From: a virus | Virus record (IMG/VR): IMGVR_UViG_3300025327_000478 | Span: 1-24,921 of that record | Direction: 5' to 3' (one strand) | Length of the DNA: 24,921 nt | Shown here: positions 1,828 to 24,921 of the stretch, piece by piece | Layout: every line of letters starts with the position of its first letter | Position numbering within the stretch: the stretch's first letter is position 1 | Made by a program: the position numbers and the translations under genes | Notes under the pieces: model-generated | Told to the model about the DNA's origin: nothing | The model's input: the letters and a program-made list of their open reading frames with translations, nothing else | Databases searched by the model: none

Positions 1828-2081
1828 TGTACACCGAGAGAGAATACGACATCATGCTCCTGGAAGCCCAGGAGGAAAACGACAAGCTGATACAAGAAGT
1901 CGCCCTGGAACTATTAGGGAACAGGGCGAAGAGGATGGTGAAGAATGGCGAAATTGGCGGGGGGGACAACGCCTCCCAAGCCGGTCCGAACGCCCCCGAT
2001 CAAGCGGCCGCCGGTGCCGGTGGTAACGCCGCGGGGGGTGTTTACGCCAGGGGCCCAACCCCAGCCGTGGGTCAACCCTAG
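1827..2081 (+). CDS. Small hypothetical protein, overlaps next gene by 137 nt
   Basis: An 84-aa ORF that starts at the TAATG overlap with the portal stop. The first 45 residues are charged and helical (MYTEREYDIMLLEAQEENDK onward, with many Glu and Lys) and look like real protein. The remaining 39 residues are Ala/Gly/Pro-rich and lie in the region where the next gene, in the +1 frame, is also open. A run of seven G (1959-1965) sits where the character changes, so this may be the N-terminal part of a frameshifted fusion with the following gene rather than a complete protein. Function unknown. Confidence 0.5.
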   Translation: MYTEREYDIMLLEAQEENDKLIQEVALELLGNRAKRMVKNGEIGGGDNASQAGPNAPDQAAAGAGGNAAGGVYARGPTPAVGQP

Positions 2082-8807: not shown

Positions 8808-8819
8808 TTGTGCTAAAAT
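8791..8819 (+). promoter_or_regulatory. Predicted sigma70 promoter for scaffold/capsid genes
   Basis: TTGCAC (8791-8796) and TAAAAT (8814-8819) are separated by exactly 17 nt, and TG at 8811-8812 gives an extended -10 element (TGCTAAAAT). It spans the stop of the giant gene and the only gap ahead of the scaffold gene, whose Shine-Dalgarno (GGAGG, 8829-8833) lies just after the expected start point. It would give the capsid genes their own strong transcription. Host sigma-factor preference is unknown. Confidence 0.55.
8793..8813. promoter_or_regulatory. Inverted repeat within promoter spacer (possible operator)
   Basis: GCACAA (8793-8798) and TTGTGC (8808-8813) form a perfect 6-bp dyad with a 9-nt centre that overlaps the -35 and abuts the -10. 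A third copy, GCACAA at 8781-8786, lies 12 bp upstream in direct orientation, although both GCACAA copies also encode Ala-Gln at the end of the giant protein. It could be a repressor or activator site or a weak hairpin. Confidence 0.35.
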
Positions 8820-8842
8820 AGTTGGCATGGAGGACAAACAGG

Positions 8843-9568
8843 ATGACCGCTAGTGTGCAGGACGCCTTTCCGGTGGTCGAGCCGGAACCGATGGGGCCGC
8901 CAGCCCCTGACGTTTCGGGCGGATCAGCGGATGCGGGTTCGGCAGCGACCGGCCCAGACGCAAGTGCTTTCGCTAAGGAGTTGGCCGAGGTAAAGGCACG
9001 TCTTGATAAGCTCCCCGATGACATCGATGCGAGGTTCAAGTCCGCCAAGGACAAGAGGTTCGCCAAGGTCGATGAAATCTACGAGTGGGTCAAGGCTGCG
9101 GGGGGAGACCCCAAGAAGATCGAGGACAAAATTGAGCGCCAGGCGCTCGTGGACCGATTGGAAGCCCTCGAAAAGCCAACTTCAAGTTCCGTCAGCGCTC
9201 CTGGCAGGGCGGCTGATGGGGACGCCGAGAGTAGAACGGCGAAATTCCTGAATGACCTGAAAGATGAGTCCGGAGTCGAACTAACCGACGAAGAGGTTCA
9301 CCAGATTTGGGACGGCAAACGCTATACCAACTGGGAGGACGCCTTCAGGGATGCCCGCAAGGCCGCTTTCAAGAAGGCCAAGGGCGAGAAGATCGGCGCC
9401 GGAGCCGTAGTCTTTGAGTCTGGCGTTGGCGTAACTTCCGCAACGGAAGATGAGCTGGCGCGGGAACTGAGAGACATCCAGGAGGGAAGACGCGGAAGCG
9501 CCATCTCACCTGAAAACAAGAAACGACGCGCTGAACTAAAGGCTCAACTCGCCTCGCAGAGGCGATAG
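8843..9568 (+). CDS. Putative capsid scaffolding protein
   Basis: 241 aa from the ATG at 8843, chosen over an in-frame TTG at 8822 because GGAGG lies 9 nt upstream of the ATG and the TTG would fall at or before the predicted transcription start. The N-terminus is Pro/Ala/Gly/Ser-rich and disordered-looking. Residues from about 35 on are strongly charged and helical (FAKELAEVKARLDKL, later EDELARELRDIQEGR), with a basic C-terminus ending ELKAQLASQRR. A disordered acidic start, coiled coil and basic helical tail, directly before the capsid gene, match phage scaffolding proteins, which guide capsid assembly and then leave. No protease motif was seen. No sequence signature proves it. Confidence 0.6.
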   Translation: MTASVQDAFPVVEPEPMGPPAPDVSGGSADAGSAATGPDASAFAKELAEVKARLDKLPDDIDARFKSAKDKRFAKVDEIYEWVKAAGGDPKKIEDKIERQALVDRLEALEKPTSSSVSAPGRAADGDAESRTAKFLNDLKDESGVELTDEEVHQIWDGKRYTNWEDAFRDARKAAFKKAKGEKIGAGAVVFESGVGVTSATEDELARELRDIQEGRRGSAISPENKKRRAELKAQLASQRR

Positions 9569-9825
9569 TGCCGCTCGATTGGATGCACCTAGAAGGCGAG
9601 GAGAAGGCGCAAGCCATCCTCGATGATATTGAGGGCCTGGAAGACGCCGAGGTTCAGTCACTCCTAGAGGAGTGGCGCGAACTGGAGGGCTCAGACGACT
9701 CTAAGTTGTCTGACCTGACGCGCCTTGCCCTTGATTTTCTTGCACGCAAGAGTGGTGCCCCAACGAGCCGAGAGCGGGCTAGAGCCAGCCTTCAGCGCCG
9801 AGGGGTAATAGAATGGCCTCCTTGA
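9568..9825 (+). CDS. Small acidic hypothetical protein before major capsid gene
   Basis: 85 aa with a GTG start in a TAGTG overlap with the scaffold stop. The sequence is acidic and helical (KAQAILDDIEGLEDAEVQSL) with a basic end (RERARASLQRRG). It overlaps the major capsid gene by 13 nt. An ATG at 9583 is an alternative start. Its place suggests a capsid-assembly or minor head protein, but no family was recognised. Confidence 0.55.
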   Translation: MPLDWMHLEGEEKAQAILDDIEGLEDAEVQSLLEEWRELEGSDDSKLSDLTRLALDFLARKSGAPTSRERARASLQRRGVIEWPP

Positions 9826-11060
9826 TCCAAACGGTTTCCTCGACTGCGGTGGGCGGGCAAAACCTTCCCAATTCAGTCAGGACCCAGTACATTGAGAACT
9901 ACATCGAAGCTGCCGAGATGGCGCGCGTCTACGACCAGATTGCTGCGCCCATTGGCAGAGACATGAGCAACCTTGCTCGTGGTTCCTCGGTGCAGGTTAA
10001 TGCCCTTTCGGACATGCAGCCTGGCACCTCGGCAATCTCCGAAGTCTCGGACATCGCCATGCAGGCACTCAGGGACGCGACCCTGAGCATCACCCCCACC
10101 AGCCGCGGCGAGGGCATTCAGTGCTCCGAGCTGCTTCTAAACCAGGCATACACCGACTACGGTGCCCAGCGGTTTGGGATCGTCGGCAAGGGGTTGATGG
10201 AAAGCCTTGAGGTTCTGGCCCGCGACGCGGCCACTCAGGGAAGTCTCGTCATCCGCCAGGGCGTTGCTGCCCGAACCTCACTTCTGGCTTCTGCAACGGG
10301 CCACCGGGCGACCGACGGCCTGTTCAGTGACGCCTCGACGATGCTGGAAACCCTCAAGTGCCCTGGCTTCAAGGGCATGGGCGGGGGTCGGCGCTGGGTT
10401 GCGATCATGCACCCGGCCGCCTTCCATGACATCCGCGAGGACGGAAACGTCCAGAACGTCGGCATCTACCAAGACAAGGGGATCATCCTCAATTATGAGT
10501 TGGGGAGCATCGGTCCATTCGCTCTCGTGAGTTCAGCCTGGGCGAAGGTCTTCGGTGGAGCCGGGGCTCCTTTGACTGATCCGGGTTCAGCGGTGTTCTA
10601 CACCCTGACCTCCTCGGTCAACGCCCTGGACAAGACCTTGGTCCTGTCCACGGTAACACACCTGGACACACCCACCAACAAGTGGCTTACCATCGGCACG
10701 CGAGAGACGGGCGATACGTCCTACCCGCTGAACGATCGGGTGCGCTTTGTGTCTCATGCCGCTGGAGTAGTGACGTTTGTTGGCGAGGCCTCCAACGGCG
10801 GGTTGCGCTTTGACCATGCCGCGGCCACCTGGGTCGGGAATGCCTCAGATGTGTTCCCCATCGTCTTCGGTGGACCGATGTCGCTGGCGAAGGTCTACGA
10901 GCCTTCGGTTGGCGAGTACGGCACCATCGTTGGCCCGAAGCGCGACGGCTCACTGGACCAGTGGGTCACACTCGGCTTCAAGTGGTACGGGAACTACGGC
11001 CGGATGAGCGAGAGCTGGCTCATGCGGGCCGAGGTTGCCTCGAGCGCAAGCGTCGCGTAA
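9813..11060 (+). CDS. Major capsid protein, N4-gp56 / HK97-fold type
   Basis: 415 aa, the size expected for an HK97-fold capsid subunit. Features that resemble the N4-gp56 family are the N-terminal RTQYIENYIEAAEMARVYDQ followed by IAAPIGRDMSNLARGSSVQV, the segment LRDATLSITPTSRGEGIQCS (about 86-105), a helix carrying LEVLARDAATQGSL, the strand WVAIMHPAAFHDIRED (about 195-210), and the C-terminal QWVTLGFKWYGNYGRMSESW. Residues about 252-350 are Thr/Val/Gly-rich and beta-like, and probably form an inserted surface domain between core segments. The start is supported by GAGGGG 7 nt upstream. It follows scaffold-like genes and is followed by a decoration-like gene, the usual order. Confidence 0.85.
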   Translation: MASLIQTVSSTAVGGQNLPNSVRTQYIENYIEAAEMARVYDQIAAPIGRDMSNLARGSSVQVNALSDMQPGTSAISEVSDIAMQALRDATLSITPTSRGEGIQCSELLLNQAYTDYGAQRFGIVGKGLMESLEVLARDAATQGSLVIRQGVAARTSLLASATGHRATDGLFSDASTMLETLKCPGFKGMGGGRRWVAIMHPAAFHDIREDGNVQNVGIYQDKGIILNYELGSIGPFALVSSAWAKVFGGAGAPLTDPGSAVFYTLTSSVNALDKTLVLSTVTHLDTPTNKWLTIGTRETGDTSYPLNDRVRFVSHAAGVVTFVGEASNGGLRFDHAAATWVGNASDVFPIVFGGPMSLAKVYEPSVGEYGTIVGPKRDGSLDQWVTLGFKWYGNYGRMSESWLMRAEVASSASVA

Positions 11061-11653: not shown

Positions 11654-12745
11654 ATGCGAGTTTTTGTCGGCGGAGTATCATCGGAATACGCACATGGGGG
11701 TTGCGTAGAATCGTTCCTTACCATCAGATTGAGGCCCGGAGACGAGCGCAAGTACCAGTGGCGCACGCGCGGAGACATTGCCCGTACCGAACTCTGTGAC
11801 GAGTTTATGCGTCGCAAGGAGTTCGACGCCTTCTTCCTGGTGGACGTGGACATGCTGTTCGACCACGACATCCTGGAGAGGATGCGGTCACACGACCTAG
11901 ATATTGTCAGCGGGCACTACTTCCGCAGGCGCTTCAACCCAATGATTTCGATTGCCGAGGTCGGGGAATGGCCCTATGAGCCACTGTACGACATCCCCGA
12001 TGACGGGCTGATTGAGGTCTCGACCAGCGGTTTCGGCTGTCTGCTTATCAAGAGGAATGTTCTGGAAGCAGTACAGAAGACGATGGATCCCAAGGAGCCA
12101 ATCCTGGGAATGGGGCCCCTGCCCGAGATGACCAATGGTGATCGAGGCCCGTTTGGAGCAGACTTCGTGTTCTCCGCAAGGGCCAGACAATTGGGTTACA
12201 AGCACTGGGTGGATTGCAATCCCGTGGCGGAGGCCAGGCACGCGGCGACCGTGTTCTTGGACAGGAAACTGTACAAGAAGGTCCGTGACTGGCAGGTAGA
12301 GAAAGCCGCCGACCACTGGAACAAAATCTGGCAACTCAATCTGGAGGTTCATGGAATGGACGCAAAGACCGCCGACGCACGAGTGAAACAACTCCAACTG
12401 ATCCGCAAAGGCTTTGCCGATAGCTTGCGGGATTTTGAGGATCAGGCGGCGAACCTGCGCACCCGCATTTTCATCGTGGATGGGCAGATTGCCGAACGAG
12501 AAATTGACATACAGACAGCGCCGCCGGAACCAAAGACGCTGACGGCAGAAGACTCTCCGAAGCCGCTATTTCTGGGAAAGTTGCCCGTGTTCAACTCAGA
12601 GGAAGAGGCGAAGGCCGCCCTGGCGAATAGGGGCAAGGGACCAGAGGGAGAGAGCGAAGAAGAGGGTCAACGTCTTAGGGAACCGGTAGCCAAGAAAACC
12701 GCACAGGATTTCTTGGGGGCGCTAAACGATGGCTCGGCCTCTTGA
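11654..12745 (+). CDS. GT-A-fold glycosyltransferase with long C-terminal extension
   Basis: 363 aa. The first ~200 residues look like a GT-A nucleotide-sugar glycosyltransferase: RGDIARTELCDEFMRRKEFD leads to FFLVDVDMLF with a DxD motif (DVD, residues 64-66) that would bind the metal and sugar nucleotide. Then come DIVSGHYFRRR (83-93), STSGFGCLLIKRNVLE (123-138) and GADFVFSARARQLGY with WVDCNPVAEARHA (168-197), similar to the acceptor-site and metal-His region of GT2-like enzymes. Residues ~205-363 are an added helical, charged and then Pro/Glu-rich tail with no recognised domain. GGAGGG at 11645 serves the start. Its place next to capsid genes raises the possibility that it glycosylates the virion; it could instead modify host surface sugars. 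Confidence 0.68.
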   Translation: MRVFVGGVSSEYAHGGCVESFLTIRLRPGDERKYQWRTRGDIARTELCDEFMRRKEFDAFFLVDVDMLFDHDILERMRSHDLDIVSGHYFRRRFNPMISIAEVGEWPYEPLYDIPDDGLIEVSTSGFGCLLIKRNVLEAVQKTMDPKEPILGMGPLPEMTNGDRGPFGADFVFSARARQLGYKHWVDCNPVAEARHAATVFLDRKLYKKVRDWQVEKAADHWNKIWQLNLEVHGMDAKTADARVKQLQLIRKGFADSLRDFEDQAANLRTRIFIVDGQIAEREIDIQTAPPEPKTLTAEDSPKPLFLGKLPVFNSEEEAKAALANRGKGPEGESEEEGQRLREPVAKKTAQDFLGALNDGSAS

Positions 12746-13292
12746 GGTTATCAGGCACTGCTGCCTGGTAGGGACGAACCTTGAGCGCGCCGACCTGAGA
12801 TCCATGGACCTCAGGGGAGTGAACTTTACCAATTCAAACCTGCGTGGGGCAGACCTGTCCCACGCCGACTGTCGGGGAGCGATCTTCGTGAAGGCGGACC
12901 TCTCGCGGGCGTGCCTCTACAACACGAACTGCGAGGATGCGGACTTCAGCAACGCCGACCTCACCATGTCCTACCTACGGGCCACTAATTTCAACCACGC
13001 CACGATGTGGTGGGCATCCCTAAGAAGGGTGACGGCCAAGAGCGCCTTCTTCCTTGGGGCAGACATGACCGGCGTAGACATGGCTTACGGGTTCTTTCTG
13101 GGATCTAGGTTTGGGCCTCCTCTTTGCAAGGCCGACCAGATGCGGAATGTTGACAAGGCGGTCTTCCACTGGTACTGGAACCCCAAGGGAGGCATCCCAT
13201 CCTACGACCCGAAAGAGGGGTACGTGGATCTCTGGCACAGCGTCCTGGGGGGAATCTCCATCCAGGAGAATGCCGCGGCTAGGCCGAAATGA
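12729..13292 (+). CDS. Pentapeptide-repeat protein (copy 1)
   Basis: 187 aa. Residues ~13-132 are about 24 consecutive five-residue repeats of the A(D/N)LxX type (LERAD LRSMD LRGVN FTNSN LRGAD LSHAD ...), which fold into a right-handed quadrilateral beta-helix. The last ~50 residues form a non-repeat cap (NVDKAVFHWYWNPKGGIPSY, then DP) that closely matches the end of the second copy at 13723. Some pentapeptide proteins mimic DNA and protect gyrase, but many have no known role, and no function is assigned here. It overlaps the glycosyltransferase by 17 nt and has GGGGG upstream, and ends in an ATGA overlap with the coiled-coil gene. Confidence 0.85.
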   Translation: MARPLEVIRHCCLVGTNLERADLRSMDLRGVNFTNSNLRGADLSHADCRGAIFVKADLSRACLYNTNCEDADFSNADLTMSYLRATNFNHATMWWASLRRVTAKSAFFLGADMTGVDMAYGFFLGSRFGPPLCKADQMRNVDKAVFHWYWNPKGGIPSYDPKEGYVDLWHSVLGGISIQENAAARPK

Positions 13293-13726
13293 GACATCGC
13301 GCCCTTGAGTTGAGATTGCAGGAACTGGAAATGCAACTGGAGTTCCTGGTCAAACAGGTCAATGAGGCAAGAGCCTCCGGGGCGGAGAAGACCGTCATTG
13401 CCGAGCTGATGCTGAAGTACACCGATGTCGAGGCTCGGATGGACGAGATACATCTGTGGGAAAAGGCGGAGGAGCAGAACCCGCGGTATGGAACCCAGAT
13501 CAGAGTCAACGGGATGTGGCGCCCGAAGTTGCCGGAGTTTGGATCTCTGGAGAGGGCACTAGAGGCCATGAATTCCCCAACTGGGGGAGGACATTCGGCG
13601 GCGGCTGTGAGGGCGGCAAGGGAGTTTCGGTCCAGCGAGGACGCCAGGGAAACTGTCAGGTCCTTAGACGGTAGAAGCCCACTCGTTCCAGAGGAAGAAC
13701 GGAAGCCGTTCAACACGACGCTATGA
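13289..13726 (+). CDS. Small coiled-coil hypothetical protein
   Basis: 145 aa, started in an ATGA overlap. The first ~60 residues form a heptad-like charged helix (LELRLQELEMQLEFLVKQVN), followed by a mixed central part with YGTQIRVNGMWRPKLPEFGS and a polar, probably disordered end. It lies between the two pentapeptide-repeat genes and ends in another ATGA overlap, so it is likely made together with them and may bind one. No family recognised. Confidence 0.6.
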   Translation: MRHRALELRLQELEMQLEFLVKQVNEARASGAEKTVIAELMLKYTDVEARMDEIHLWEKAEEQNPRYGTQIRVNGMWRPKLPEFGSLERALEAMNSPTGGGHSAAAVRAAREFRSSEDARETVRSLDGRSPLVPEEERKPFNTTL

Positions 13727-14343
13727 CCAGCGTAGATAAGCGCCTGGAGCTGGCTTACAAGAGTTCCCTCGTCGGGGCGAACCTGGAGAGAGCGGATTTG
13801 CGTGGTCTGGATTTGCGAGGCATCAATCTGACCAGCGCCAACCTCCGAGGGGCCGATTTGTCGCAGGCGAACTTGTCGCAGGCGACGCTGATTAGGACTG
13901 ATTTGTCCAGGGCCAACATCCAGCGGGCGAACTTCGCCAATGCCGACATGACGGGCTGCGACCTTACGGGGACTTATGGCAGAGGGGCAAAGTTCTACAG
14001 GACCAAGTTGTGCCTTGCCTATCTGAGATATGCCCAGTTCAAGAACGCATTCTTCATTGAGTGTGATCTGACGTCGGCCGACTTCTTGAATAGCCTCTTC
14101 CTTGGGGCGAAGTTTGATGGCTCCAACACAGAGGGCGTGAAGAATGCCGATAGGGCCATCTTCCTGTGGTGGTGGTCGCCGCTAAAGACTGGGAAAATCA
14201 GCTACGATCCTCTACCGGGGTGGCTGCAACTGGACGAGAGCGTTACCGGGGTCGAGAGCGTTCGAGAGAACGCCGCCCGAGAGCGTGTTGAAGACTCCGT
14301 ACAGAAGGCGTGGGAGGTCATGGACGATGCCTCGAAAGCGTAA
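13723..14343 (+). CDS. Pentapeptide-repeat protein (copy 2)
   Basis: 206 aa and a clear paralogue of the product at 12729. Both begin their repeats with LVG(A/T)NLERADLR followed by LRG(I/V)N and LRGADLS. About 24 pentapeptide units cover residues ~16-137 (LERAD LRGLD LRGIN LTSAN LRGAD LSQAN ...). The C-terminal part again contains the shared cap: NADRAIFLWWWSPLKTGKIS leading to YDPLPGW, and SVTGVESVRENAARERVE. The repeats here are more regular than in copy 1. It overlaps the preceding gene by ATGA and the following coiled-coil gene by 17 nt. The function is unknown; the gene pair and shared cap suggest two subunits of one structure or two targets of one activity. Confidence 0.86.
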   Translation: MTSVDKRLELAYKSSLVGANLERADLRGLDLRGINLTSANLRGADLSQANLSQATLIRTDLSRANIQRANFANADMTGCDLTGTYGRGAKFYRTKLCLAYLRYAQFKNAFFIECDLTSADFLNSLFLGAKFDGSNTEGVKNADRAIFLWWWSPLKTGKISYDPLPGWLQLDESVTGVESVRENAARERVEDSVQKAWEVMDDASKA

Positions 14344-14656
14344 GGACCAGCCGGTTCCTCTGGAAGAACTGCGGTTCTCGGGGGATGCTAACCTCATTCT
14401 TGCCAGACTCAAGGCAGAATTGGCCGAAAGGGACAGGTACATCAATGTCCTGGAGAATAAGAACCTGGGTATGGAGAAGTGTGCCAATAGGGTCTGGGCT
14501 GCCCTGGAGGAGGCGGAGGCAATGGCTAATCGCTTCCCGCAGTTTGTCCAGGATGCCCTGAATGACCCGAAGAAGCACGCCTCCAGACTAGCCGAGGCGG
14601 CTCGCTATGGCAGGATCTTCCGGGAAGCGAAGGACGACTTCCAGAGACTCAGATGA
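14327..14656 (+). CDS. Small helical hypothetical protein
   Basis: 109 aa from the ATG at 14327, preferred over a GTG at 14285 because GGGAGG lies 9 nt upstream and the resulting 17-nt overlap matches the local style. The N-terminus is basic (MPRKRKDQPVP), followed by a helical, coiled-coil-like part (ILARLKAELAERDRYINVLE) and a basic end (RYGRIFREAKDDFQRLR). It follows the second pentapeptide gene as the other coiled-coil gene follows the first, though the two small proteins are not visibly alike. It ends in ATGA with the cytidylyltransferase gene. Function unknown. Confidence 0.6.
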   Translation: MPRKRKDQPVPLEELRFSGDANLILARLKAELAERDRYINVLENKNLGMEKCANRVWAALEEAEAMANRFPQFVQDALNDPKKHASRLAEAARYGRIFREAKDDFQRLR

Positions 14657-15366
14657 CTCGTGCGCAGAAGGTCCTCGGGGTTACGGCCGCCAGAGGGGGA
14701 AGCAAGGGAGTTCCTCGGAAGAACATCCGCCAGATCGGCGGCATTCCTCTGATTGCCTACACCATCCGAGAAGCCAAGAAGAGCCGTCTCATCAGTAGAT
14801 ACATTGTGTCTACGGACGACGATGAGATAGCCGAGGTTGCCCGCCACTATGGGGCTGAGGTTTTGATGCGGCCGGCGGAACTGGCCGAAGACCACACCCC
14901 CATGATTGCCGTGATGCAGCACGCCCTGAAATGGTGCGAGGAGGAAGAGGGGGAATGGTATGACATCGTGGCCGATCTCAGATGCACCAATCCTCTCAAG
15001 ACGGCCCATGACATCGACGGGGCAATAGAGAAACTGATCCACACCGGGGCGGATGGCGTTATCGGGGTTACAAAGTTGGACGACCACCACCCGGCACGGA
15101 TTAAGCGGGTCTTCGAGGATAGACTGATTGACTTTGCCTGGCCCGAGCCGCCGGCCGGATTGAGACAGGAACTGAAACCCGATGCCTTCATTCGCAACGG
15201 CAGCCTGTATGTGGTTCTTAGGGACGCACTTTTGGACGGCATTCTTCTTCAGGGCAGCGACAATCTTAGACCTTGGTATATGCCGCTGGAGAAGAGTGTG
15301 AACATCGACTCTGAGCTGAACTTCGTGTTGGTGGAGGCGCTCCTTGGACGCAACCGCCAGATTTGA
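14653..15366 (+). CDS. CMP-nonulosonate (sialic-acid-type) cytidylyltransferase family protein
   Basis: 237 aa, the normal length of a single-domain acylneuraminate cytidylyltransferase. These enzymes activate nonulosonic acids (sialic, legionaminic, pseudaminic) or KDO by transfer of CMP from CTP. Motifs: the CTP-binding loop AARGGSKGVPRKN (12-24), IPLIAYTIREAKKSRLI (31-47), STDDDEIA (53-60), RPAELAED (73-80), RNGSLYV (181-187) and VNIDSELNFVLVE (216-228). It is the first gene of the sugar cassette and starts in an ATGA overlap. A pathway partner, a NeuB-type synthase, is three genes downstream. The exact sugar cannot be read from the sequence. Confidence 0.85.
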   Translation: MTRAQKVLGVTAARGGSKGVPRKNIRQIGGIPLIAYTIREAKKSRLISRYIVSTDDDEIAEVARHYGAEVLMRPAELAEDHTPMIAVMQHALKWCEEEEGEWYDIVADLRCTNPLKTAHDIDGAIEKLIHTGADGVIGVTKLDDHHPARIKRVFEDRLIDFAWPEPPAGLRQELKPDAFIRNGSLYVVLRDALLDGILLQGSDNLRPWYMPLEKSVNIDSELNFVLVEALLGRNRQI

Positions 15367-16075
15367 CCTGGGAGACAGGGAGTACATCTTCACGGCCCCA
15401 ACGAGTCTCCAGTTCAAGACGGTCAAGAAGATCATCGACTCCTATTATGGAGAAGAGCGGGTCCGCAAGAGAATTGGCGATGTTCATCACATCGTTGATG
15501 TGGGTGCATGTATAGGAACGATGTCTCTTTGCTATACGACCATCTGGCCCGATGCGGAAATTCTAGCCATAGAGCCACATCCGCTGAACTTCAAGTATCT
15601 TGTGGAGAATTGCAAGGCGTTCAAGAACATCCATCCTGTGTGTATCGCCCTAGGCGACAAAGAGGAGAGAATACGCCTCGCCCTTCCATCTCCCGAGCAG
15701 CGCCCATTGTATCCGCAGTTCAGTAGGCTCGCCAATGTCGGCATGGCTTCTCGATACGGGAACTCCGATAACTACGTGGCCGAAGTGGATGCAGTAACCC
15801 TGGACAGTATTGTCGGGTGGGACGTGGACCTTATCAAGATCGACGTGGAGGGTTCGGAGGTTTCTGTTCTTCGGGGGGCAGAGAGGACCATCGAGGCCAC
15901 TCATCCGTTCCTGGTTGTGGAGGCCAGGGAGGAGAACCAGAAGATGGCGGGGGGGTCCCTCGAAGAGTTGAGCAACAGCCTGAAGAGGCTGGGCTACATT
16001 CACAGATGGCAATGGGGTGGCGATGCCTGTCTTCAACACCCGCTGAGGAAGCCGTTGTGGACACACTATTCATAG
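15344..16075 (+). CDS. FkbM-family SAM-dependent methyltransferase
   Basis: 243 aa. Class I methyltransferase signature: HIVDVGACIGTMSL (49-62) for SAM binding, AIEPHPLNFKYLVEN (75-89) for the acidic ribose-binding position, and the FkbM hallmark DLIKIDVEGSEVSVLRGA (162-179). Members methylate hydroxyl groups of sugars or polyketides; O-methylation of a glycan is the natural reading here. The start is TTG at 15344, with GGAGG 6 nt upstream, and a 23-nt overlap with the cytidylyltransferase gene. The next coding trace (a NeuB N-terminal stump) overlaps its end. Confidence 0.85.
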   Translation: MDATARFDLGDREYIFTAPTSLQFKTVKKIIDSYYGEERVRKRIGDVHHIVDVGACIGTMSLCYTTIWPDAEILAIEPHPLNFKYLVENCKAFKNIHPVCIALGDKEERIRLALPSPEQRPLYPQFSRLANVGMASRYGNSDNYVAEVDAVTLDSIVGWDVDLIKIDVEGSEVSVLRGAERTIEATHPFLVVEAREENQKMAGGSLEELSNSLKRLGYIHRWQWGGDACLQHPLRKPLWTHYS

Positions 16076-16113
16076 CCGAACTCGGCAGTATGCACAAGGG
16101 CATTGGAGGTTGA
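16057..16113 (+). pseudogene. N-terminal stump of a NeuB-type synthase gene
   Basis: An 18-codon frame from GTG 16057 reads FIAELGSMHKGI before a stop, and 10 of these 12 residues equal FAAELGSLHKGI at the start of the NeuB-type gene at 16741. Most base differences between the two are at third codon positions, so both were once coding. GAGGAA lies 6 nt before the GTG, and the frame overlaps the FkbM stop by 19 nt, as expected for a real gene in this operon. The rest of the gene is missing; the second glycosyltransferase follows at once. Seen: the homologous segment. Inferred: it is a remnant left by recombination. Confidence 0.6.
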
Positions 16114-16115
16114 TC

Positions 16116-16784
16116 GTGGAGATCGTAACGGCGGCAGACACGGGCTATTTTCGATATCTTCTGAGACTCGTGACGACGTCGCACGGCTGGTTGAACGTCC
16201 GGCCAGTTGTATACGATCTTGGCCTGACGGGGATTGAGTTGCTGGCATTGTCGATGATGGGCATTCAAACAAGAGGCGGGCCAAGGAAAATACCACGGGG
16301 CAGAGGTTATCCGCCAGGATATACCCCGAGGGCACTCCACAAGCCCCTTATACTCCTTGATTACTGCCGTCAATCTACAAGTGACATCATCTATATGGAT
16401 GCCGATGCGTGGATTGTCTCGCCATTCGAGTTCCCCATAAGGGGCATTGGCGTTACGCGCGTTAGAGACAAGGTTGTGGAAGCATACCTAGGATCACCAT
16501 TGGCGGACTATAGAGGTCCGCATCATTCTGGCGTTCTTTTCCTTGGCCATAACTCTCAAAGACTGCCCTTTCTGGGCGCCTGGGCCGCGGACACGCTTTC
16601 TGATTCCAGTCCCAGCGACAAGAAATCAATGAACAAAGTTCTGACAAACTATGACTTCACGGTTTTGGATGAAGACGAATGGAATGCAAGCACCATGTTT
16701 CCGATGACCAAAATATTCCACGCTCATGGAGGCCAGAGTGATGAACAGCGTGTTCTTTGCGGCCGAGCTGGGGAGTCTTCATAA
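16116..16784 (+). CDS. GT-A glycosyltransferase (GT8-like), second of the cassette
   Basis: 222 aa from the GTG at 16116, which has GGAGG 6 nt upstream; a TTG at 16110 directly abuts that site and is less likely. Motifs: MEIVTAADTGYFRYLLRL at the start, DIIYMDADAWIVSPFEF with DxD (DAD, about 95-97) for metal and nucleotide-sugar binding, then HHSGVLFLGHNSQRLPFLGA and a late IFHAHGG whose His could be a metal ligand. This order resembles GT8-type nucleotide-diphospho-sugar transferases. The last ~15 residues lie in the 44-nt overlap with the next gene and look unlike the rest, so the original end may have been lost. Base composition is lower in G+C than its neighbours (for example 21 of 60 in 16621-16680), which fits separate acquisition. 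Confidence 0.68.
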   Translation: MEIVTAADTGYFRYLLRLVTTSHGWLNVRPVVYDLGLTGIELLALSMMGIQTRGGPRKIPRGRGYPPGYTPRALHKPLILLDYCRQSTSDIIYMDADAWIVSPFEFPIRGIGVTRVRDKVVEAYLGSPLADYRGPHHSGVLFLGHNSQRLPFLGAWAADTLSDSSPSDKKSMNKVLTNYDFTVLDEDEWNASTMFPMTKIFHAHGGQSDEQRVLCGRAGESS

Positions 16785-17406
16785 GGGAATTGAGGCCCTC
16801 GCGTATGAGATGGTGCGGCAGGCAAAACTTGCGGGCGCGGATGCCGCCAAGTTTCAATTCGGCTGGCCACGGGGGGCAGGGCCGATCCGATGTTGGGCGA
16901 CAGATAATGCGGCAATCATACGTAAGTGGTGTGACTATTTCAACATAGGATTTATGGCGTCGGTATTCTCGTGGGAGGGATTGGCGACTGCGGAGTCGTC
17001 TGGAGTTGATTACATCAAGATGGCACACCCGGAGACATTCGCAAAGAACGCGAACGGAGAGGATTATGATAGGCTGCTAAAGCTCTGCTTTGCCAGCAAC
17101 AAGCCGGTCTTTGTGTCGGGCAATGTGGTGCCAGGGGCGACCTGTCTATACTGTATCCCGAAGTATCCGGTCTATCAACACGCCCTCAACCTTCCCGGGG
17201 ATTTTGGCTTTTGGAATGGGTACTCTTCGCACACGCCGGGGATCGAGGATGCGCTGGTGGCCATAGCCAGGGGTGCAAGGGCCATTGAGAAGCACGTGAC
17301 TCTGAATAAGGCGGATGAGAGTATCAAGGACAATCACTTTGCGCTCTCATTCGAGGAGTTTGCCGAGATGGTCCGCATCGGAAAGGCAATGGCGAGACTG
17401 TGCTAG
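16741..17406 (+). CDS. Short NeuB-type (N-acetylneuraminate synthase family) protein
   Basis: 221 aa from the ATG at 16741 (GGAGG 8 nt upstream; an in-frame ATG at 16726 has no good site). NeuB enzymes condense phosphoenolpyruvate with an amino sugar to form a nonulosonic acid in a TIM barrel. Family landmarks: AELGSLHKG (8-16), QAKLAGADAAKFQ (27-39), VDYIKMAHPETF (89-100), KPVFVSGN (121-128), CIPKYPVYQHALNL (138-151), GYSSHTPG (160-167), IEKHVTLNK (182-190) and DNHFALSFEEF (197-207). Usual members are about 340 aa; this one lacks the C-terminal SAF (antifreeze-like) domain and the stretch normally found between the S-x-G and the C-x-x-x-Y-P segments. Several usual residues differ, so activity or substrate may be altered. 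It pairs functionally with the cytidylyltransferase. Confidence 0.76.
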   Translation: MNSVFFAAELGSLHKGIEALAYEMVRQAKLAGADAAKFQFGWPRGAGPIRCWATDNAAIIRKWCDYFNIGFMASVFSWEGLATAESSGVDYIKMAHPETFAKNANGEDYDRLLKLCFASNKPVFVSGNVVPGATCLYCIPKYPVYQHALNLPGDFGFWNGYSSHTPGIEDALVAIARGARAIEKHVTLNKADESIKDNHFALSFEEFAEMVRIGKAMARLC

Positions 17407-18329
17407 CACACTGGAGCGCCCCCTACAGACCCCATTGGAAGATGTGGTCCTGGCCGTGCGAGACATCGTTCTGGGAGGTCTACGAGGCAAAAGACCTAGA
17501 GAAACTACTACCCATTGGGGTGTTGTACGCCAACCCAAATGCGCACTATGTTCTGGACATGGCCGCTCTGGAGATGCTGCCCGACCTCAAGATGGTTGTG
17601 ACGCCGTCTACAGGTAACACACACATCGACATGCTGGCTCTCAGAGAGGCGGGCGTTGAATTGCGGTCCCTGCTGGATGACAGGCCAGCTCTAGAGGAGA
17701 TCAGAGCCAGTTCGGAGTTCACGTTCCTGCTCATTCTGAATGCCCTACGCCGACTGGACAAGATGTTGCTATCCGGGGAGTGGAAGCGGGACGAGGAAAG
17801 CCTGCGAGGGCATGAACTATACGAGGCGATGATTGGGCTGGTGGGTTATGGAAGGATAGGCAAGAACATTGAGCGGTGGTGCCGGGAGTTTGGGGCCGGC
17901 GTTTACTGGTATGACCCCTATGATGAAGCGAGAGACCACATCTATCAGTCTAGCCCCCTGTGGCAATTCTCTAGTTGCCAGGTCGTGGTTCTGTGTTGTG
18001 CCCTGACGGCCGAAACCAGGGGGATGATTACCGGGCAGATGATCTACCGGATGAAGCCGAACGCAACCCTCATCAATACCGCAAGAGGGGAACTGCTGGC
18101 GGACGATGTTTACGACGCTCTCAAGAAGCGCCAGGATGTGACTGCCTGGTTTGACGTACTGCCGGGAGAGGCCAATGGCGGCCCGGAGCAGACCTACCTG
18201 GAACTGCCAAATGTCCATGTGACACCGCACATAGCGGGAACGACATTTGAGAGTCAGGAGAAGGCGGCGAGGATAGCCATGCGCTTGGCGGGGAGGTGGT
18301 TGGATGCCTACTGCAAAAGTCCAGCCTAA
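17400..18329 (+). CDS. D-2-hydroxyacid dehydrogenase (phosphoglycerate-dehydrogenase-like)
   Basis: 309 aa. It has the split substrate/NAD-binding organisation of the D-isomer 2-hydroxyacid dehydrogenases: TPSTGNTHIDMLALREAGVE (68-87), Rossmann loop GLVGYGRIG (146-154), WYDPYDE (170-176) after the strand that binds the NAD ribose, NTARGELLADDVYDAL (226-241) with the catalytic Arg, FDVLPGEA (251-258) and the catalytic His in PHIAGTT (276-282). No ACT or other regulatory domain follows. The start is GTG at 17400 with a 7-nt overlap and only a weak ribosome site, suggesting coupling to the NeuB-type gene. In this context it may oxidise or reduce a sugar-derived 2-hydroxy or 2-keto acid; the substrate is unknown. 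Confidence 0.82.
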   Translation: MLAHWSAPYRPHWKMWSWPCETSFWEVYEAKDLEKLLPIGVLYANPNAHYVLDMAALEMLPDLKMVVTPSTGNTHIDMLALREAGVELRSLLDDRPALEEIRASSEFTFLLILNALRRLDKMLLSGEWKRDEESLRGHELYEAMIGLVGYGRIGKNIERWCREFGAGVYWYDPYDEARDHIYQSSPLWQFSSCQVVVLCCALTAETRGMITGQMIYRMKPNATLINTARGELLADDVYDALKKRQDVTAWFDVLPGEANGGPEQTYLELPNVHVTPHIAGTTFESQEKAARIAMRLAGRWLDAYCKSPA

Positions 18330-18582
18330 GTGCTATGAGTTCGTGAAGGCTAGCAGACGGGACTTCAACGCCATCGAGGTAGACGGGAAAGTCCTCAAGA
18401 TGGGCAAGAAGACGGCCGCCTTCACAACGCACGATGCAACACTGGCAAATGAAATCAACGCCCGTTATGGGTGGCAGAGGGGCGCCACTGGCGACCTGAT
18501 CATGAATACCGTAGACACTCACCTTCGTCGGGTGAAGTTCTTTGTGATGCCGGAGCTTCCCTGGAAGCGAAAGAAGGAATAA
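18304..18582 (+). CDS. Small basic hypothetical protein
   Basis: 92 aa from the ATG at 18304, which has GGGGAGG 7 nt upstream and overlaps the dehydrogenase gene by 26 nt. Readable segments are CYEFVKASRRDFNAIEVDGK, then VLKMGKKTAAFTTHDATLA, and a basic end (ELPWKRKKE). It directly precedes the adaptor-like gene (TAA then ATG with no gap), so it belongs with the tail-connector genes rather than the sugar cassette. No family assigned. Confidence 0.6.
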   Translation: MPTAKVQPKCYEFVKASRRDFNAIEVDGKVLKMGKKTAAFTTHDATLANEINARYGWQRGATGDLIMNTVDTHLRRVKFFVMPELPWKRKKE

Positions 18583-19464
18583 ATGGCATTCGTTCTGAGC
18601 AACCTATTGCAGCAAGCATTTATCAGACTGGGCCAGGCGAACATCTCCACGGCCACCGGGGGCGCCACAACCTCGGTGGTCGACAGCAAGCAGGTTGGGC
18701 TACATGGGGACAATGCCTGGAAGGATGGCGCCTGCATCATCATAAGGGATGTCGCCGGTCTATCTGCCGCTCCCGAGACTGAGATTGCGCTGGTCACTGC
18801 GTACACCGACTCTACGGGGACGTTCACATCTGCCACCTCGGCGTACACCGTGGCTCCTGCGGATGGTGATACGTTCATGTTCGTCAACGACTTTTACCCT
18901 TTATTCACCATGAGGGAGTTGGCGAACTCCTGCTTACAGGCACTGGGTCCAATTCCCCTCATTGACAGTTCGATTACCACCGCCGCGGCCCAGACGGAAT
19001 ATACCCTACCCGTTACGGCGAAGAGGATGGCCCCGCTTCGGGTGGAGTACAACACCAAGGTTGGCGATGCCAACGACAACCAGTATGTCCCCATTGATAA
19101 CTATCGTATCGTTCCCGCGACTGCCGGAACGGCGGGGGTGATTGTCCTTCCGCAACTACCCACAAGTAGAACGGTTCGCATCTGGTACATGGGCGTCCAC
19201 CCGACGCTAACTGCGCACAGCAGCGCCGTGGCAGAAGTCATTGATCCCGAACTGGCAACGGCCCTGCTTGTCGAGAAGGCCCTGGAGTGGCAGAACTCCA
19301 GGCTTCAGGGAGGAGATGACTTCCTCCTTCAGCGGTGGAATGACCAGAAGCAGCAGGTAGTTGAGGCAAGGGCGAACTTCCCCATCTGGAAGCCGAAGAG
19401 ACGCCCGAGATTACTGGTGATCGGCGACTACGTGACAGAAGATGAGTTCACGCACCCAACATGA
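18583..19464 (+). CDS. Putative head-tail adaptor / connector protein
   Basis: 293 aa. The N-terminal ~110 residues are Thr/Ala/Gly-rich and beta-like (ATGGATTSVVDSKQVGLHGD, AYTDSTGTFTSATSAYTVAP). A helix follows (FTMRELANSCLQALGPIPLI), then a beta-rich central part with the strand VRIWYMGVHPTL, and a long C-terminal helix (ELATALLVEKALEWQNSRLQ, then a QKQQVVEARANF segment). A helical bundle with a beta barrel-like insert, one copy, and a place just before a large tail protein fit adaptor proteins that join the portal to a short tail. The evidence is structural feel and position rather than a strict motif. Confidence 0.5.
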   Translation: MAFVLSNLLQQAFIRLGQANISTATGGATTSVVDSKQVGLHGDNAWKDGACIIIRDVAGLSAAPETEIALVTAYTDSTGTFTSATSAYTVAPADGDTFMFVNDFYPLFTMRELANSCLQALGPIPLIDSSITTAAAQTEYTLPVTAKRMAPLRVEYNTKVGDANDNQYVPIDNYRIVPATAGTAGVIVLPQLPTSRTVRIWYMGVHPTLTAHSSAVAEVIDPELATALLVEKALEWQNSRLQGGDDFLLQRWNDQKQQVVEARANFPIWKPKRRPRLLVIGDYVTEDEFTHPT

Positions 19465-19490: not shown

Positions 19491-21859
19491 GTGTAGGTCC
19501 CAAGATCAAGAACCCGACCCACGACTTAGCCCTAGAGGGAGACAACTTCCTATGGGGGCTGAAGCTGGACGGTGGCGTGCGGGGGATGCAGGAGATTTCC
19601 CAGTCTCCTTCCACGATGCTGATTGGCAGCGGAGGAAAGAGGTTCGGCACTGGTGATCCGACGTTCACCGAGATTGAGCAGTCTTCGTGGCATGGCGGGA
19701 GAGGTTCAGAGTTCTTCTCCGATGATGAGACCAGGTACCTAGACTCTTGGCAGGCGATGACCCGCATTCCGGGTAGGCTTCTCCCTCAGTTGCGGTGGGA
19801 CTTTGCGCCATGCACAACGCTGACGACGACGAGAACCGTAGACACAATACCGTTCGCCTCGCATTCGTGGAAGCAGCTCAGGGGTTCCACTCGATACATC
19901 GACGTGAAGTTCACGTCGCTCGGTTTGACGGCGGACAAGTGCTACATCTGGCTGCGCCGCAGAGGAAGCCCCGGAACCCTGACGCTGGAACTATGTGCCA
20001 ATCTCGGAGATGACACCCCGGCGCTCACCGCCTCTGCCCTCAAGTCCATAACTGTCACGACCTCGACAATTACCGACACCCTATCGCGGCTCTACGCCTT
20101 CGACTGGACGACCACGCAGGCCCTAACTGCCTCGACCGCCTATCATATCAAGATCTTCGGCGCATCCACGGACAACGCCGCCAACCATTGGGAGGTGGCG
20201 GTGGACGAGACCGGTTCTGCCTCCCTCACTGCCACGACTGACGGGACCTGGACGGCGGCATCCTTCAGCATGTACTTCCGCGTGGTTCCGGCAGATGCGG
20301 CGATGAAGTGGCACTTCTTCACCATCAGCGGCACATTCCACGCCATCAGCGAGAAGGACTCTGGAGACAGCACGCTATTCGAGTGGGATGAGACAAACGA
20401 TCTATGGGTTGCCGTTACCCTGGATGCGGGAGATGCGCTAAGCGGGACCGTCAAATCGGTGGCGGTTTCCAAGAACATCGCCCACTGCGCCAGGGGAACG
20501 GCGGGGGGATCTGAGACTATCTGGACGCTGACCAATGTATCTGGTACAGCCACGGGGCAGGACGATGCAACCGCCGCCAACGTTGCGGACCTAGTTCTGG
20601 CCTACAACGATCCCGTAGATGGGCCTCAGATAGCCAGATTTGAGAACAACAACTGGTACTGGTCACGGTCGGACGTGAAGGCGCTCAATACCGACCTCGT
20701 GTTTGGGACGGACGTGGAGTTCCCGCAGGGCTTCAATGCACTTGCGATGGCGTTCTACAACGACCAGGTGTGGGTCAGGACCACGGACGGCCTCCACTCC
20801 GTGAAGAACGACCGCCCCTCCCGTCTCGATGTTGGGCTGGATGCTGTGCTAGAGCCCTCGACCTCGGCGGGCGCGCTGCTTGCCAAGGACCTTTTCCTCT
20901 ATCTGGCATGGTCGTTCTCGATTGAGAGACTGTACGGCGGGACGCTGGACGACATAGGCCCCTGGAAGGGCGCCGGTCTACCAGATGGCAGGCAGGGAGT
21001 TGTCTCCTGTTTCTGCTCGGGCATTGGCGGTATCTACGTTGGAATAGACGGCGGCTCCGGAAATACATCGTCAGTCTTCTTCACCACAAACGGCAGGGAT
21101 TACGAGGAAGTGTTCCGCGCATTCGAGGCTGGACAGCGAGTTCGCAACATTGCCTACCAGCCACAGAATGGGACGACCAACCCCGCAAGATTGTGGATCA
21201 GCGTTGGCAGCGATCTGGTGTTCATTGCCCTACCAGACCAGTCCATGAATCCACTGCACGACTCCGACAGTCGGTTCGTCCACGAGTATTCCGTTACATC
21301 CCCAACGCATGACTTCGGGGCATCCCATCTGCCCAAGTTCTTCAGGGCGGTCGAGTTGTCGGCGGATAACCTGGGGGCGGAGTGTGATGTGGGGGTGGAT
21401 TACCAGATAGACAAAGACGTAGGCACATCTACCTGGGTAGAACAAACCACCCTATACCAATCACCCCACGACGTGGCCGACCTAAATATGGGCAACCGCA
21501 AGAAGCTGCGTTACCGCCTGCGCTGCAATACCTCCAATGCGGCCACCCCGCCCGCCGTGAATGCAGTGGTGGTTACCGGCTTTGCCAGGACGAAACTCAA
21601 GCGGCAGTGGAACCTGCGGGTAAAGGCGGCAGACCTCCAGAGAACCAGAACGGGCGGCAAAGACCACTCGTGGTCCAGCTTCTACGCCTTCATTCAGGAG
21701 GGGGCAAAGCAGGCGGACGACTTTGTGCTGCGCTCTCCAGAGGTAGAACTGGACGGCTTACACGTTGTTATGGATGCGCCGACGGTATTCAGGAAGTTTC
21801 AGAACACCATCCAGCGCTGGACCGGAGGCTCCTTTGCTCTCACCCTACGGGAAGCGTAA
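19487..21859 (+). CDS. Large tail protein, nozzle/hub-like
   Basis: 790 aa, rich in Thr, Ser, Trp and Asp with many short predicted strands and no coiled coil or membrane segment. The start NPTHDLALEGDNFLWGLKLD, then GVRGMQEISQSPST and EQSSWHGGRGSEFFSDDETR are followed by sandwich-like domains (residues ~100-270), a central region with repeated strand-turn patterns that could be a beta-propeller (~290-560), and a C-terminal part ending RKFQNTIQRWTGGSFALTLR. Size, beta content and place after the adaptor fit the tail nozzle of podoviruses or a tail hub protein. The GTG at 19487 is the only sensible start. It overlaps the nuclease gene by 26 nt. Confidence 0.55.
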   Translation: MSVGPKIKNPTHDLALEGDNFLWGLKLDGGVRGMQEISQSPSTMLIGSGGKRFGTGDPTFTEIEQSSWHGGRGSEFFSDDETRYLDSWQAMTRIPGRLLPQLRWDFAPCTTLTTTRTVDTIPFASHSWKQLRGSTRYIDVKFTSLGLTADKCYIWLRRRGSPGTLTLELCANLGDDTPALTASALKSITVTTSTITDTLSRLYAFDWTTTQALTASTAYHIKIFGASTDNAANHWEVAVDETGSASLTATTDGTWTAASFSMYFRVVPADAAMKWHFFTISGTFHAISEKDSGDSTLFEWDETNDLWVAVTLDAGDALSGTVKSVAVSKNIAHCARGTAGGSETIWTLTNVSGTATGQDDATAANVADLVLAYNDPVDGPQIARFENNNWYWSRSDVKALNTDLVFGTDVEFPQGFNALAMAFYNDQVWVRTTDGLHSVKNDRPSRLDVGLDAVLEPSTSAGALLAKDLFLYLAWSFSIERLYGGTLDDIGPWKGAGLPDGRQGVVSCFCSGIGGIYVGIDGGSGNTSSVFFTTNGRDYEEVFRAFEAGQRVRNIAYQPQNGTTNPARLWISVGSDLVFIALPDQSMNPLHDSDSRFVHEYSVTSPTHDFGASHLPKFFRAVELSADNLGAECDVGVDYQIDKDVGTSTWVEQTTLYQSPHDVADLNMGNRKKLRYRLRCNTSNAATPPAVNAVVVTGFARTKLKRQWNLRVKAADLQRTRTGGKDHSWSSFYAFIQEGAKQADDFVLRSPEVELDGLHVVMDAPTVFRKFQNTIQRWTGGSFALTLREA

Positions 21860-22286
21860 GACATTCAAGTACAAACTGCGCCCTCGTCCTCCGGAGATGC
21901 CGCTGAACAGATTGGCGGGGGCGAGTGAGACAGAGAGACTGACTGGCTTTGTGCATGGGAAAGAGGCGTCTGATCTGGAGGAAAGGTTTGCTCGGGCGCT
22001 GGATAGGGCGGGTAAGGATTACCGATTTGAGTATCTAGTTCTATCCAACATAGGACTTCCGGGCGAGGAGAACCAGATTGACTTTGTGGTGGATGACATC
22101 TACCCGGTGGAAGTTGACGGCAACTTCACGCACAAGTCGGCAGAGCAGAAAGCGCATGACCAACAGAGAGATGCCATCCTGAATGAGCAACTATCTGACT
22201 GGGGGTGGTATCCGATTGACCGCATTCCGGGGGACTTTCTGGAGACGCAGGAAGCCGCCAACCAGATAGTCGGGGAGAAATTCTAG
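21834..22286 (+). CDS. Putative PD-(D/E)XK-like endonuclease
   Basis: 150 aa from the TTG at 21834, chosen because CGGAGG lies 5 nt upstream and the frame then begins with a natural basic segment (KRKTFKYKLRPRPPE). Possible catalytic core: Glu in SDLEERFARAL (about 46-56), Asp in NQIDFVV (83), and YPVEVDGNFTHKSAEQKAHD (about 90-109) with the E-x-D pair at 93 and 95, resembling small restriction-like or Vsr/resolvase-like nucleases. The last part, GWYPIDRIPGDFL, also recalls such enzymes. A nuclease among tail genes could resolve DNA during packaging or be carried in a mobile position. The exact fold is not certain and the usual Lys after the E is replaced. Confidence 0.5.
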   Translation: MLSPYGKRKTFKYKLRPRPPEMPLNRLAGASETERLTGFVHGKEASDLEERFARALDRAGKDYRFEYLVLSNIGLPGEENQIDFVVDDIYPVEVDGNFTHKSAEQKAHDQQRDAILNEQLSDWGWYPIDRIPGDFLETQEAANQIVGEKF

Positions 22287-24639: not shown

Positions 24640-24921
24640 TGCCCACCAACGGTTCCCGCGTCACCCAGAAGCAGCTATTCGAAACCGTCATGGAACTCGA
24701 CGGTAAGCTATCATCCAAGATGGACAACATCCTGGCGCAGGTGACCTCGAACAGGGTAGCCAATGCGGGGGAATACGCCTGTCTCCAGGAGGGTCTCAAT
24801 AGCCTCAAGACACGCCTGGAGGGAAAGGGGGGCCTGATTGACCGGATAGACACAATCGACGGGAAGGGGGGACGCCTGACAGTCCTTGAGCACAGTGATA
24901 GGAAGGTTGGCTTCTGGGCCA
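24639..24921 (+). CDS. Coiled-coil protein, 3'-partial (possible lysis-module or tail protein)
   Basis: 94 codons are visible, running off the right edge. It starts at ATG in a TGATG overlap. The sequence is helical and heptad-like (KQLFETVMELDGKLSSKMDN, then LQEGLNSLKTRLEGKG and LIDRIDTIDGKG), ending DRKVGFWA at the edge. Small phage proteins with a coiled coil followed by a basic patch and a membrane segment (XhlA-like) often sit beside holin genes after the fibre genes, but the membrane part, if present, is outside the window. Confidence 0.6.
   Translation, partial: MPTNGSRVTQKQLFETVMELDGKLSSKMDNILAQVTSNRVANAGEYACLQEGLNSLKTRLEGKGGLIDRIDTIDGKGGRLTVLEHSDRKVGFWA

What the first reader, a model, noticed from the sequence alone, without database searches (positions are those of the whole stretch)
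11654..18329. Sugar synthesis, activation, methylation and transfer cassette inserted in a virion operon
Between the decoration-like gene and the tail-connector genes lie two GT-A glycosyltransferases, a CMP-nonulosonate cytidylyltransferase, an FkbM methyltransferase, a NeuB-type synthase and a D-2-hydroxyacid dehydrogenase, together with two pentapeptide-repeat proteins. All overlap and run with the late genes. The set could make and attach a modified acidic sugar to capsid or tail proteins, a virion-glycosylation system made late in infection. The enzyme families are recognised by motif; the target and timing are inferred.
Basis: partly seen in the sequence, partly recalled or inferred. Interest (0 to 1): 0.78.

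Follow-up and report, generated by a model that had tools for sequence, protein, structure and literature searches.

The report
Phage sialic-acid-like sugar cassette in virion operon
A tailed bacteriophage known only from metagenomes carries, between its capsid and tail genes, enzymes that look able to finish, activate and attach a sialic-acid-like sugar, probably to coat its own particles, and many other uncultured phages carry related genes next to their packaging genes.

Summary
11654-18329 carries ten tightly packed same-strand genes, including GT1, a CMP-nonulosonate cytidylyltransferase, an FkbM methyltransferase, a barrel-only NeuB and a D-2-hydroxyacid dehydrogenase. A syntenic complete podovirus (MW202608.1) has one unrelated ORF there. 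Corrections: GT2 (16110) is unproven; the NeuB lacks its SAF domain; precursor-making genes (PseB, PseC, Epimerase_2) are absent from the phage's contigs, so the path is partial. (1) GT1 relatives in 42 viral contigs sit in the same MCP-small ORF-GT-adaptor slot (38 with both flanks visible), with no sugar-supply genes nearby and an unrelated MCP. (2) The longer near-identical contig also has a pseudaminate-associated methylase (TIGR03587, above cutoff) and a weak Maf/MptE-like protein directly upstream of terminase. (3) In 23 NeuB-bearing viral contigs with a detectable terminase, 16 have NeuB 2.3-8.8 kb upstream of it on the same strand (5.9 expected). Best reading: late, cytoplasmic nonulosonate glycosylation of virion proteins, confidence 0.52. 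The main rival is host-surface modification, which is documented for prophage nonulosonate enzymes. Product, donor and acceptor are unproven. New variant of a known kind.

The parts
9813..11060 (+). Major capsid protein (flank of the insertion)
   Evidence: phrog_1357 major head protein E=4.7e-22; 48% identical to annotated MCP of MW202608.1
11164..11598 (+). Small protein in the head-decoration position (last gene before the cassette)
   Evidence: position only; MW202608.1 has an annotated 'head decoration protein' at this place; no sequence hit
11654..12745 (+). GT1: GT-A-type glycosyltransferase domain (res ~1-200) plus a ~160-residue charged C-terminal extension
   Evidence: relatives' Pfam Anp1 hit
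12729..13292 (+). Pentapeptide-repeat protein 1
   Evidence: PF00805 E=2.4e-36; 44% identical to protein 2
13289..13726 (+). Charged, probably helical protein of unknown function
   Evidence: no confident family; dN/dS 0.11
13723..14343 (+). Pentapeptide-repeat protein 2 (paralogue of 1)
   Evidence: PF00805 E=2.8e-34
14330..14656 (+). Small charged protein (ATG start at 14330; ORF opens at 14285)
   Evidence: no family; dN/dS 0.025
14653..15366 (+). NeuA/PseF-like CMP-nonulosonate cytidylyltransferase
   Evidence: PF02348 E=1.6e-23; best PDB hit CMP-Neu5Ac synthetase 6ifd E=5.7e-31; best NCBIfam PseF, 124 bits, below its 205.7 cutoff
15344..16075 (+). FkbM-family methyltransferase
   Evidence: PF05050 E=3.9e-20; TIGR01444 88 bits, cutoff 37.7
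16110..16784 (+). GT2: putative glycosyltransferase by DxD-like motif only; recently acquired
   Evidence: no hits; model failed; GC3 54% vs 63-77% for the other genes measured; absent from G002
16726..17406 (+). Short NeuB/PseI-like nonulosonate synthase, TIM-barrel domain only (start may be 16741)
   Evidence: PF03102 E=2.2e-21; residues E14 K42 Q44 K98 H169 E188 H190 D202 invariant in 30 viral sequences; SAF domain absent
17400..18329 (+). D-2-hydroxyacid dehydrogenase
   Evidence: PF02826 E=8.5e-36; closest solved: glyoxylate reductase 5aov E=2.9e-24; 'VGYGRIG', 'TARGE' and 'TPHIAG' motifs kept
18304..18582 (+). Small conserved virion-operon protein (first gene after the cassette)
   Evidence: homologue in same place in MW202608.1, E=1e-4
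18583..19464 (+). Head-tail connector/adaptor by position
   Evidence: homologue in MW202608.1 E=1e-57 at same place

Best explanation
The cassette is an accessory insertion in the late virion operon of a podovirus-like phage. It supplies, activates and attaches a nonulosonic (sialic/pseudaminic/legionaminic-type) acid, most likely to a virion protein in the cytoplasm during late infection. Proposed steps: the short NeuB condenses PEP with a host-made hexosamine precursor; the NeuA-like enzyme makes the CMP-sugar; methyltransferases (FkbM here, Pse_Me-ase upstream of terminase) methylate the sugar or a linked sugar; GT1 adds the protein-linked sugar, and either GT1, GT2 or the Maf/MptE-like protein upstream of terminase adds the nonulosonate. 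GT1 is the core, because homologues alone hold the same capsid-to-connector slot elsewhere; the supply genes are add-ons. Shown: gene content, insertion relative to a syntenic phage, purifying selection, the recurrent GT slot, the second locus upstream of terminase. Inferred: enzyme activity, donor identity, division of labour, late timing, virion acceptor.
For: Enzyme families. One strand, overlapping genes, no internal + strand promoter-like site and promoter/terminator counts at chance. MW202608.1 is syntenic from TerL to tail and has one ~165-179 aa ORF in place of the cassette. GT1 relatives: 38 of 42 viral contigs show MCP upstream and adaptor downstream of the GT (41 the adaptor, 39 the MCP; the rest mostly contig ends), 9 groups at 70% identity, and the MCP of that lineage (tested with MW202711) is not detectably related to the window's. 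G001 and G002 encode TIGR03587-type Pse_Me-ase (192 bits in G001, cutoff 112) and an MptE-like protein directly before TerL; an MptE-like protein also lies two genes from NeuA in L018. NeuB genes of other viral contigs lie upstream of TerL on the same strand (16 of 23 within 12 kb, expected 5.9). No membrane-spanning segment predicted in any cassette protein, which fits a cytoplasmic acceptor. Precedents: mycobacteriophage capsid and tail glycans (Freeman 2023, as cited in PMC12619734) and Maf transfer of nonulosonates to flagellin (PMC11339370).
Against: No glycan, activity or expression data. NeuB lacks the SAF domain that, from general knowledge, supplies a substrate-contacting Arg in cellular enzymes. 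No precursor genes. GT1 is of a nucleotide-sugar DxD type, not a known CMP-nonulosonate transferase, and the Maf/MptE-like match is below Pfam's cutoff with a failed model. GT1's relatives sit without NeuA/NeuB, so GT1's own donor need not be the nonulosonate. Prophage nonulosonate enzymes in Acinetobacter demonstrably act on host capsule (PMC12053666).
Confidence: 0.52

Rival explanations
1. Host-surface modification: the enzymes make or alter a nonulosonate that ends up on host LPS, capsule, flagella or S-layer, blocking superinfection or changing serotype; the place in the virion operon only sets late expression.
For: Prophage epaA/epaB convert pseudaminic acid on Acinetobacter capsule (PMC12053666); phage-encoded O-acetyltransferases act on nonulosonates of capsule (PMC6586298, title). 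GT2, FkbM and NeuB are exchanged between relatives, as expected when following host glycan variation.
Against: No integrase in any of the contigs (fragments), no flippase, polymerase, acyltransferase or membrane protein in the cassette; late expression gives little time to recoat a dying cell; GT1 homologues keep the capsid-to-connector slot.
Confidence: 0.25
2. The acceptor is another phage-made molecule: the pentapeptide-repeat proteins or other cassette proteins, or phage DNA, are what is glycosylated.
For: Two paralogous pentapeptide proteins and two small charged proteins are conserved within the cassette between GT1 and NeuA. Virus glycosyltransferases can hypermodify DNA (Pyle 2024, as cited in PMC12619734).
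Against: No base-modifying hydroxymethylase noticed beside it; GT1's phage relatives lack the pentapeptide genes.
Confidence: 0.1
3. A moron-type set of partly decayed or unrelated metabolic genes with no joint function.
For: GT2 composition and patchy presence; SAF-less NeuB; dehydrogenase with no known nonulosonate role.
Against: Invariant catalytic residues in NeuB, dN/dS 0.03-0.20 across the cassette including the dehydrogenase, overlapping genes, co-occurrence of NeuB with NeuA (51) or Pse_Me-ase (24) in 94 viral loci found by NeuB or NeuA similarity.
Confidence: 0.13

Closest known systems
Mycobacteriophage virion glycosylation (Freeman et al. 2023, as cited in PMC12619734 and PMC11256854; not held in full)
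   Same: Phage-encoded glycosyltransferases, glycan on capsid/tail proteins
   Different: Here the GT sits between capsid and connector genes and comes with nonulosonate synthase, cytidylyltransferase and methyltransferases; homology of GT1 to the mycobacteriophage enzymes was not tested; no glycan shown here
Bacterial pseudaminic/legionaminic acid pathways (PseB-C-H-G-I-F; Maf transferases, PMC11339370; Bacillus sps crust genes, PMC7439481)
   Same: NeuB/PseI-like and PseF/NeuA-like steps, Pse_Me-ase, possible Maf-like transferase
   Different: Early steps missing in this phage; NeuB barrel only; genes split between two virion-operon slots
Prophage epaA/epaB of Acinetobacter baumannii (PMC12053666)
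   Same: Phage-borne nonulosonate enzymes including a CTP_transf_3 domain
   Different: epaA/B epimerise host pseudaminate in capsule by lysogenic conversion; no NeuB, no place in a virion operon described
STIV A197 viral glycosyltransferase (PDB 2c0n)
   Same: GT-A viral glycosyltransferase, profile match to GT1 (E=3e-4)
   Different: Archaeal virus, no sugar-supply cassette known to me
Pse-type clusters before terminase in IMG/VR contigs (L021, L059, L110, L030)
   Same: NeuB with cytidylyltransferase and/or Pse_Me-ase, next to packaging genes
   Different: L021 and L059 also carry PseB- and PseC-like genes; the cluster is upstream of TerL rather than after the capsid gene

Membership tests
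NeuB/PseI nonulosonate synthase | PF03102 domain above curated cutoff | tested here: met
   76.9 bits vs 22.1
NeuB/PseI nonulosonate synthase | Catalytic/metal residues of the barrel (two His, Lys, Glu, Asp) | tested here: met
   E14 K42 Q44 K98 H169 E188 H190 D202 invariant in 30 sequences; equivalence to the known active site from general knowledge
NeuB/PseI nonulosonate synthase | C-terminal SAF (antifreeze-like) domain | tested here: not met
   Protein ends after the barrel (226 aa); many viral homologues are also 218-290 aa
NeuB/PseI nonulosonate synthase | Score over NCBIfam equivalog cutoff (NeuB_NnaB or PseI) | tested here: not met
   71.4 vs 399.65 and 65.7 vs 340.25 bits
CMP-nonulosonate cytidylyltransferase | PF02348 domain and 'RGGSKGxPxKN' nucleotide motif | tested here: met
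CMP-nonulosonate cytidylyltransferase (PseF equivalog) | Score over PseF cutoff | tested here: not met
   124.4 vs 205.7 bits
Pseudaminate-associated methylase TIGR03587 (outside window, G001) | Score over curated cutoff | tested here: met
   192.3 vs 112.05 bits
Complete pseudaminic/sialic acid pathway | PseB, PseC and UDP-sugar 2-epimerase present | tested here: not met
   No match in G000, G001, G002; same searches find PseB- and PseC-like genes in G007 and G030, and Epimerase_2 in G030; contigs may be incomplete
Maf/MptE-like (PF01973) transferase (outside window) | Score over curated cutoff, modelled fold | tested here: inconclusive
   19.9 vs 34.6 bits; model pLDDT 39
GT-A glycosyltransferase (GT2, 16110-16784) | Family or fold match | tested here: inconclusive
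   No hit; model failed
Phage virion glycosylation system | GT gene embedded with virion genes | tested here: met
   window, and 38 of 42 related contigs
Phage virion glycosylation system | Glycan on a virion protein | not testable with these tools
   needs mass spectrometry of virions

The most novel reading that the evidence does not exclude
A broad, unrecognised class of tailed phages makes or completes its own nonulosonic (sialic-acid-like) acids late in infection and coats virions with them, using two standing genome slots: nonulosonate genes before terminase, and a glycosyltransferase between capsid and connector genes. The window phage combines both.
Probability: 0.33. Interest if true: 0.86.

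Novelty: new variant of a known kind. Interest (0 to 1): 0.66.

Why it matters
Phage capsid glycosylation has been shown in few phages and its logic is unknown. A cassette that couples nonulosonate activation to a glycosyltransferase in the virion operon would give a testable system for why a phage glycosylates its particle (adsorption, mimicry of the host surface, shielding, stability). The recurrence of nonulosonate genes before terminase in viral contigs, with almost no counterpart in 50,697 deposited phage records, suggests that this trait is largely invisible in cultured phages.

Tried and rejected
GT2 structure prediction (single sequence, pLDDT 29) and the Maf/MptE-like protein (two sequences, pLDDT 39) failed, so no fold search was run. 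Genome-contig scans with NeuB and GT2 gave no bacterial relative, so donor and host are unknown. PDB hits of the MptE-like profile to pentatricopeptide designs were repeat artefacts. A tandem-duplication origin for pentapeptide plus small-protein pairs was rejected: the small proteins show no similarity. Defence-system membership: no PADLOC hit. Literature searches for viral nonulosonate clusters beside terminase found none, within an open-licence library only.
Full report
WHAT IS THERE. The window is a 24.9 kb virus contig whose genes run portal, a 2025-aa protein, a scaffold-position gene, MCP, a small decoration-position protein, then the cassette, then connector and tail genes. It is nearly identical to IMG/VR contig 3300025313_000076 (34.5 kb, here G001) and related to 3300025319_000423 (21.7 kb, G002). 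The ten cassette genes overlap or nearly touch. Families: NeuA-like cytidylyltransferase, FkbM methyltransferase, NeuB, D-2-hydroxyacid dehydrogenase, two pentapeptide proteins, and GT1, a GT-A-type enzyme by profile matches to viral A197 and Mnn9 and by a relative's Anp1 match. GT2 rests on a motif only.

AN INSERTION. The complete podovirus MW202608.1 is collinear with the window (TerL, portal, 2156-aa protein, scaffold, MCP, the small protein 18304, connector, tail, nuclease-like gene) but has a single ~165-179 aa ORF where the cassette lies. So 11654-18303 is an accessory block relative to that phage.

SELECTION AND MOSAICISM. Against G002 most genes are 93-97% identical in protein, with dN/dS 0.03-0.2; but FkbM is 61% and NeuB 71% identical, GT2 is missing, and the dehydrogenase is again 93%. 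Nucleotide identity drops sharply at about 15363 and recovers at about 17300. GT2 has GC3 54% against 63-77% for all other genes measured. The block that would set sugar identity is being swapped while GT1, the pentapeptide genes and NeuA are kept.

THE GT SLOT. A GT1 profile found 42 other viral contigs. In 39 the MCP is within 3 kb upstream, in 41 the adaptor gene follows, in 38 both are seen; the exceptions are mostly contig ends. They form 9 groups at 70% identity. The adaptor is SU10-type (PF24175). The MCP of that lineage (MW202711) has no detectable similarity to the window's, and none of the contigs has NeuA or NeuB nearby. So GT1 homologues occupy the same position in a different phage lineage, on their own. 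Ascertainment: patterns came from GT1 and two such phages, so this is not an unbiased survey.

A SECOND LOCUS. Upstream of the window start, G001 and G002 carry, directly before TerL, a methyltransferase that scores 192 bits (G001 copy; G002 copy 97% identical) against 'pseudaminic acid biosynthesis-associated methylase' (cutoff 112) and a 203-aa protein with a weak MptE-like (PF01973) match. PF01973 is, from general knowledge, the domain of Maf flagellin glycosyltransferases; a similar weak match lies two genes from NeuA in L018. MW202608.1 shows no match to either protein in its TerL-to-tail part, and its annotation upstream of TerL lists none.

A WIDER PATTERN. A NeuB scan of IMG/VR gave 179 relatives (80 kept), and a NeuA scan 28. 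Of 94 such loci with NeuB, excluding the window's phage, 51 also hold a NeuA homologue, 24 a Pse_Me-ase homologue. L021 and L059 carry PseB-like, PseC-like, NeuB and cytidylyltransferase genes just before TerL. In 23 contigs with a phrog_2 TerL, NeuB is on the same strand in 22, and 2.3-8.8 kb upstream in 16 (12 kb limit; random placement mean 5.9, 0 of 20,000 draws reach 16). Caveats: contigs are not all independent, and the idea arose from four of these loci, two of which (L021, L110) are among the 23. Deposited phages almost lack these genes: NeuB of the window 0 hits, Pse_Me-ase 0, NeuA 2, two other viral NeuBs 2-3.

HOW IT MOST LIKELY WORKS. NeuB keeps the conserved barrel residues but has no SAF domain, so its substrate or assembly may differ from cellular enzymes. 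PseB, PseC and Epimerase_2 are absent from the phage's contigs although the same searches find PseB- and PseC-like genes in L021's and L059's contigs and the epimerase in L059's, so a host hexose precursor is needed. No cassette protein has a membrane-spanning stretch and no integrase was found, which favours a cytoplasmic, lytic-phase acceptor, that is virion proteins. Which enzyme transfers the CMP-sugar is open: GT1 is of a nucleotide-sugar type; the Maf/MptE-like protein is a candidate. The FkbM enzyme and Pse_Me-ase may methylate the sugar. The dehydrogenase keeps typical motifs but has no known nonulosonate role; it could act on a 2-keto acid, which is speculation.

KNOWN OR NEW. Virion glycosylation (mycobacteriophages, cited in PMC12619734) and phage-borne nonulosonate enzymes that alter host capsule (PMC12053666) are known. 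I found no report of nonulosonate activation genes inside a phage virion operon, or of the terminase-proximal pattern, in the open-licence library. I rate it a new variant of a known kind. The host-surface rival stays at about one in four.

Noticed in passing
window 23849-24699 vs L003 17120-17750: Between the window and the 99.9% identical contig G001 the gene near the tail end is replaced: a 264-aa Gly-rich protein (phrog_2295-like) here, a different 199-aa protein there; looks like exchange of a tail-tip or receptor-binding module.
   Followed up: partly
window 21765-22286: Weak NERD/MTES_1575 restriction-endonuclease-like protein (E ~0.02) among tail genes, with a homologue at the same place in MW202608.1 (E=2e-26).
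   Followed up: no
window 2730-8807: A 2025-aa protein, homologous to a 2156-aa protein in MW202608.1; probably a giant internal virion or ejection protein.
   Followed up: no
window 1827-2081 and 1945-2730: Two ORFs overlap by about 137 bp in different frames; the first has a high dN/dS (0.43) against G002.
   Followed up: no
L127-L168: Conserved small gene (~100 aa, 'orf9555') between MCP and the GT1-type gene; a candidate acceptor or decoration protein for the GT.
   Followed up: partly
L018 (206 kb contig) 1244-11058: Large phage contig with NeuA, two NeuB genes, two Pse_Me-ase homologues, a polysaccharide pyruvyl transferase and an MptE-like protein together.
   Followed up: partly
L018-L095: Viral NeuB proteins come both as barrel-only (218-290 aa) and full-length (>310 aa) forms; barrel-only forms look common in phages.
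   Followed up: partly
window 12729-14343: Paralogous pentapeptide-repeat pair alternating with small charged proteins, conserved in G002; could be structural or acceptor proteins.
   Followed up: partly
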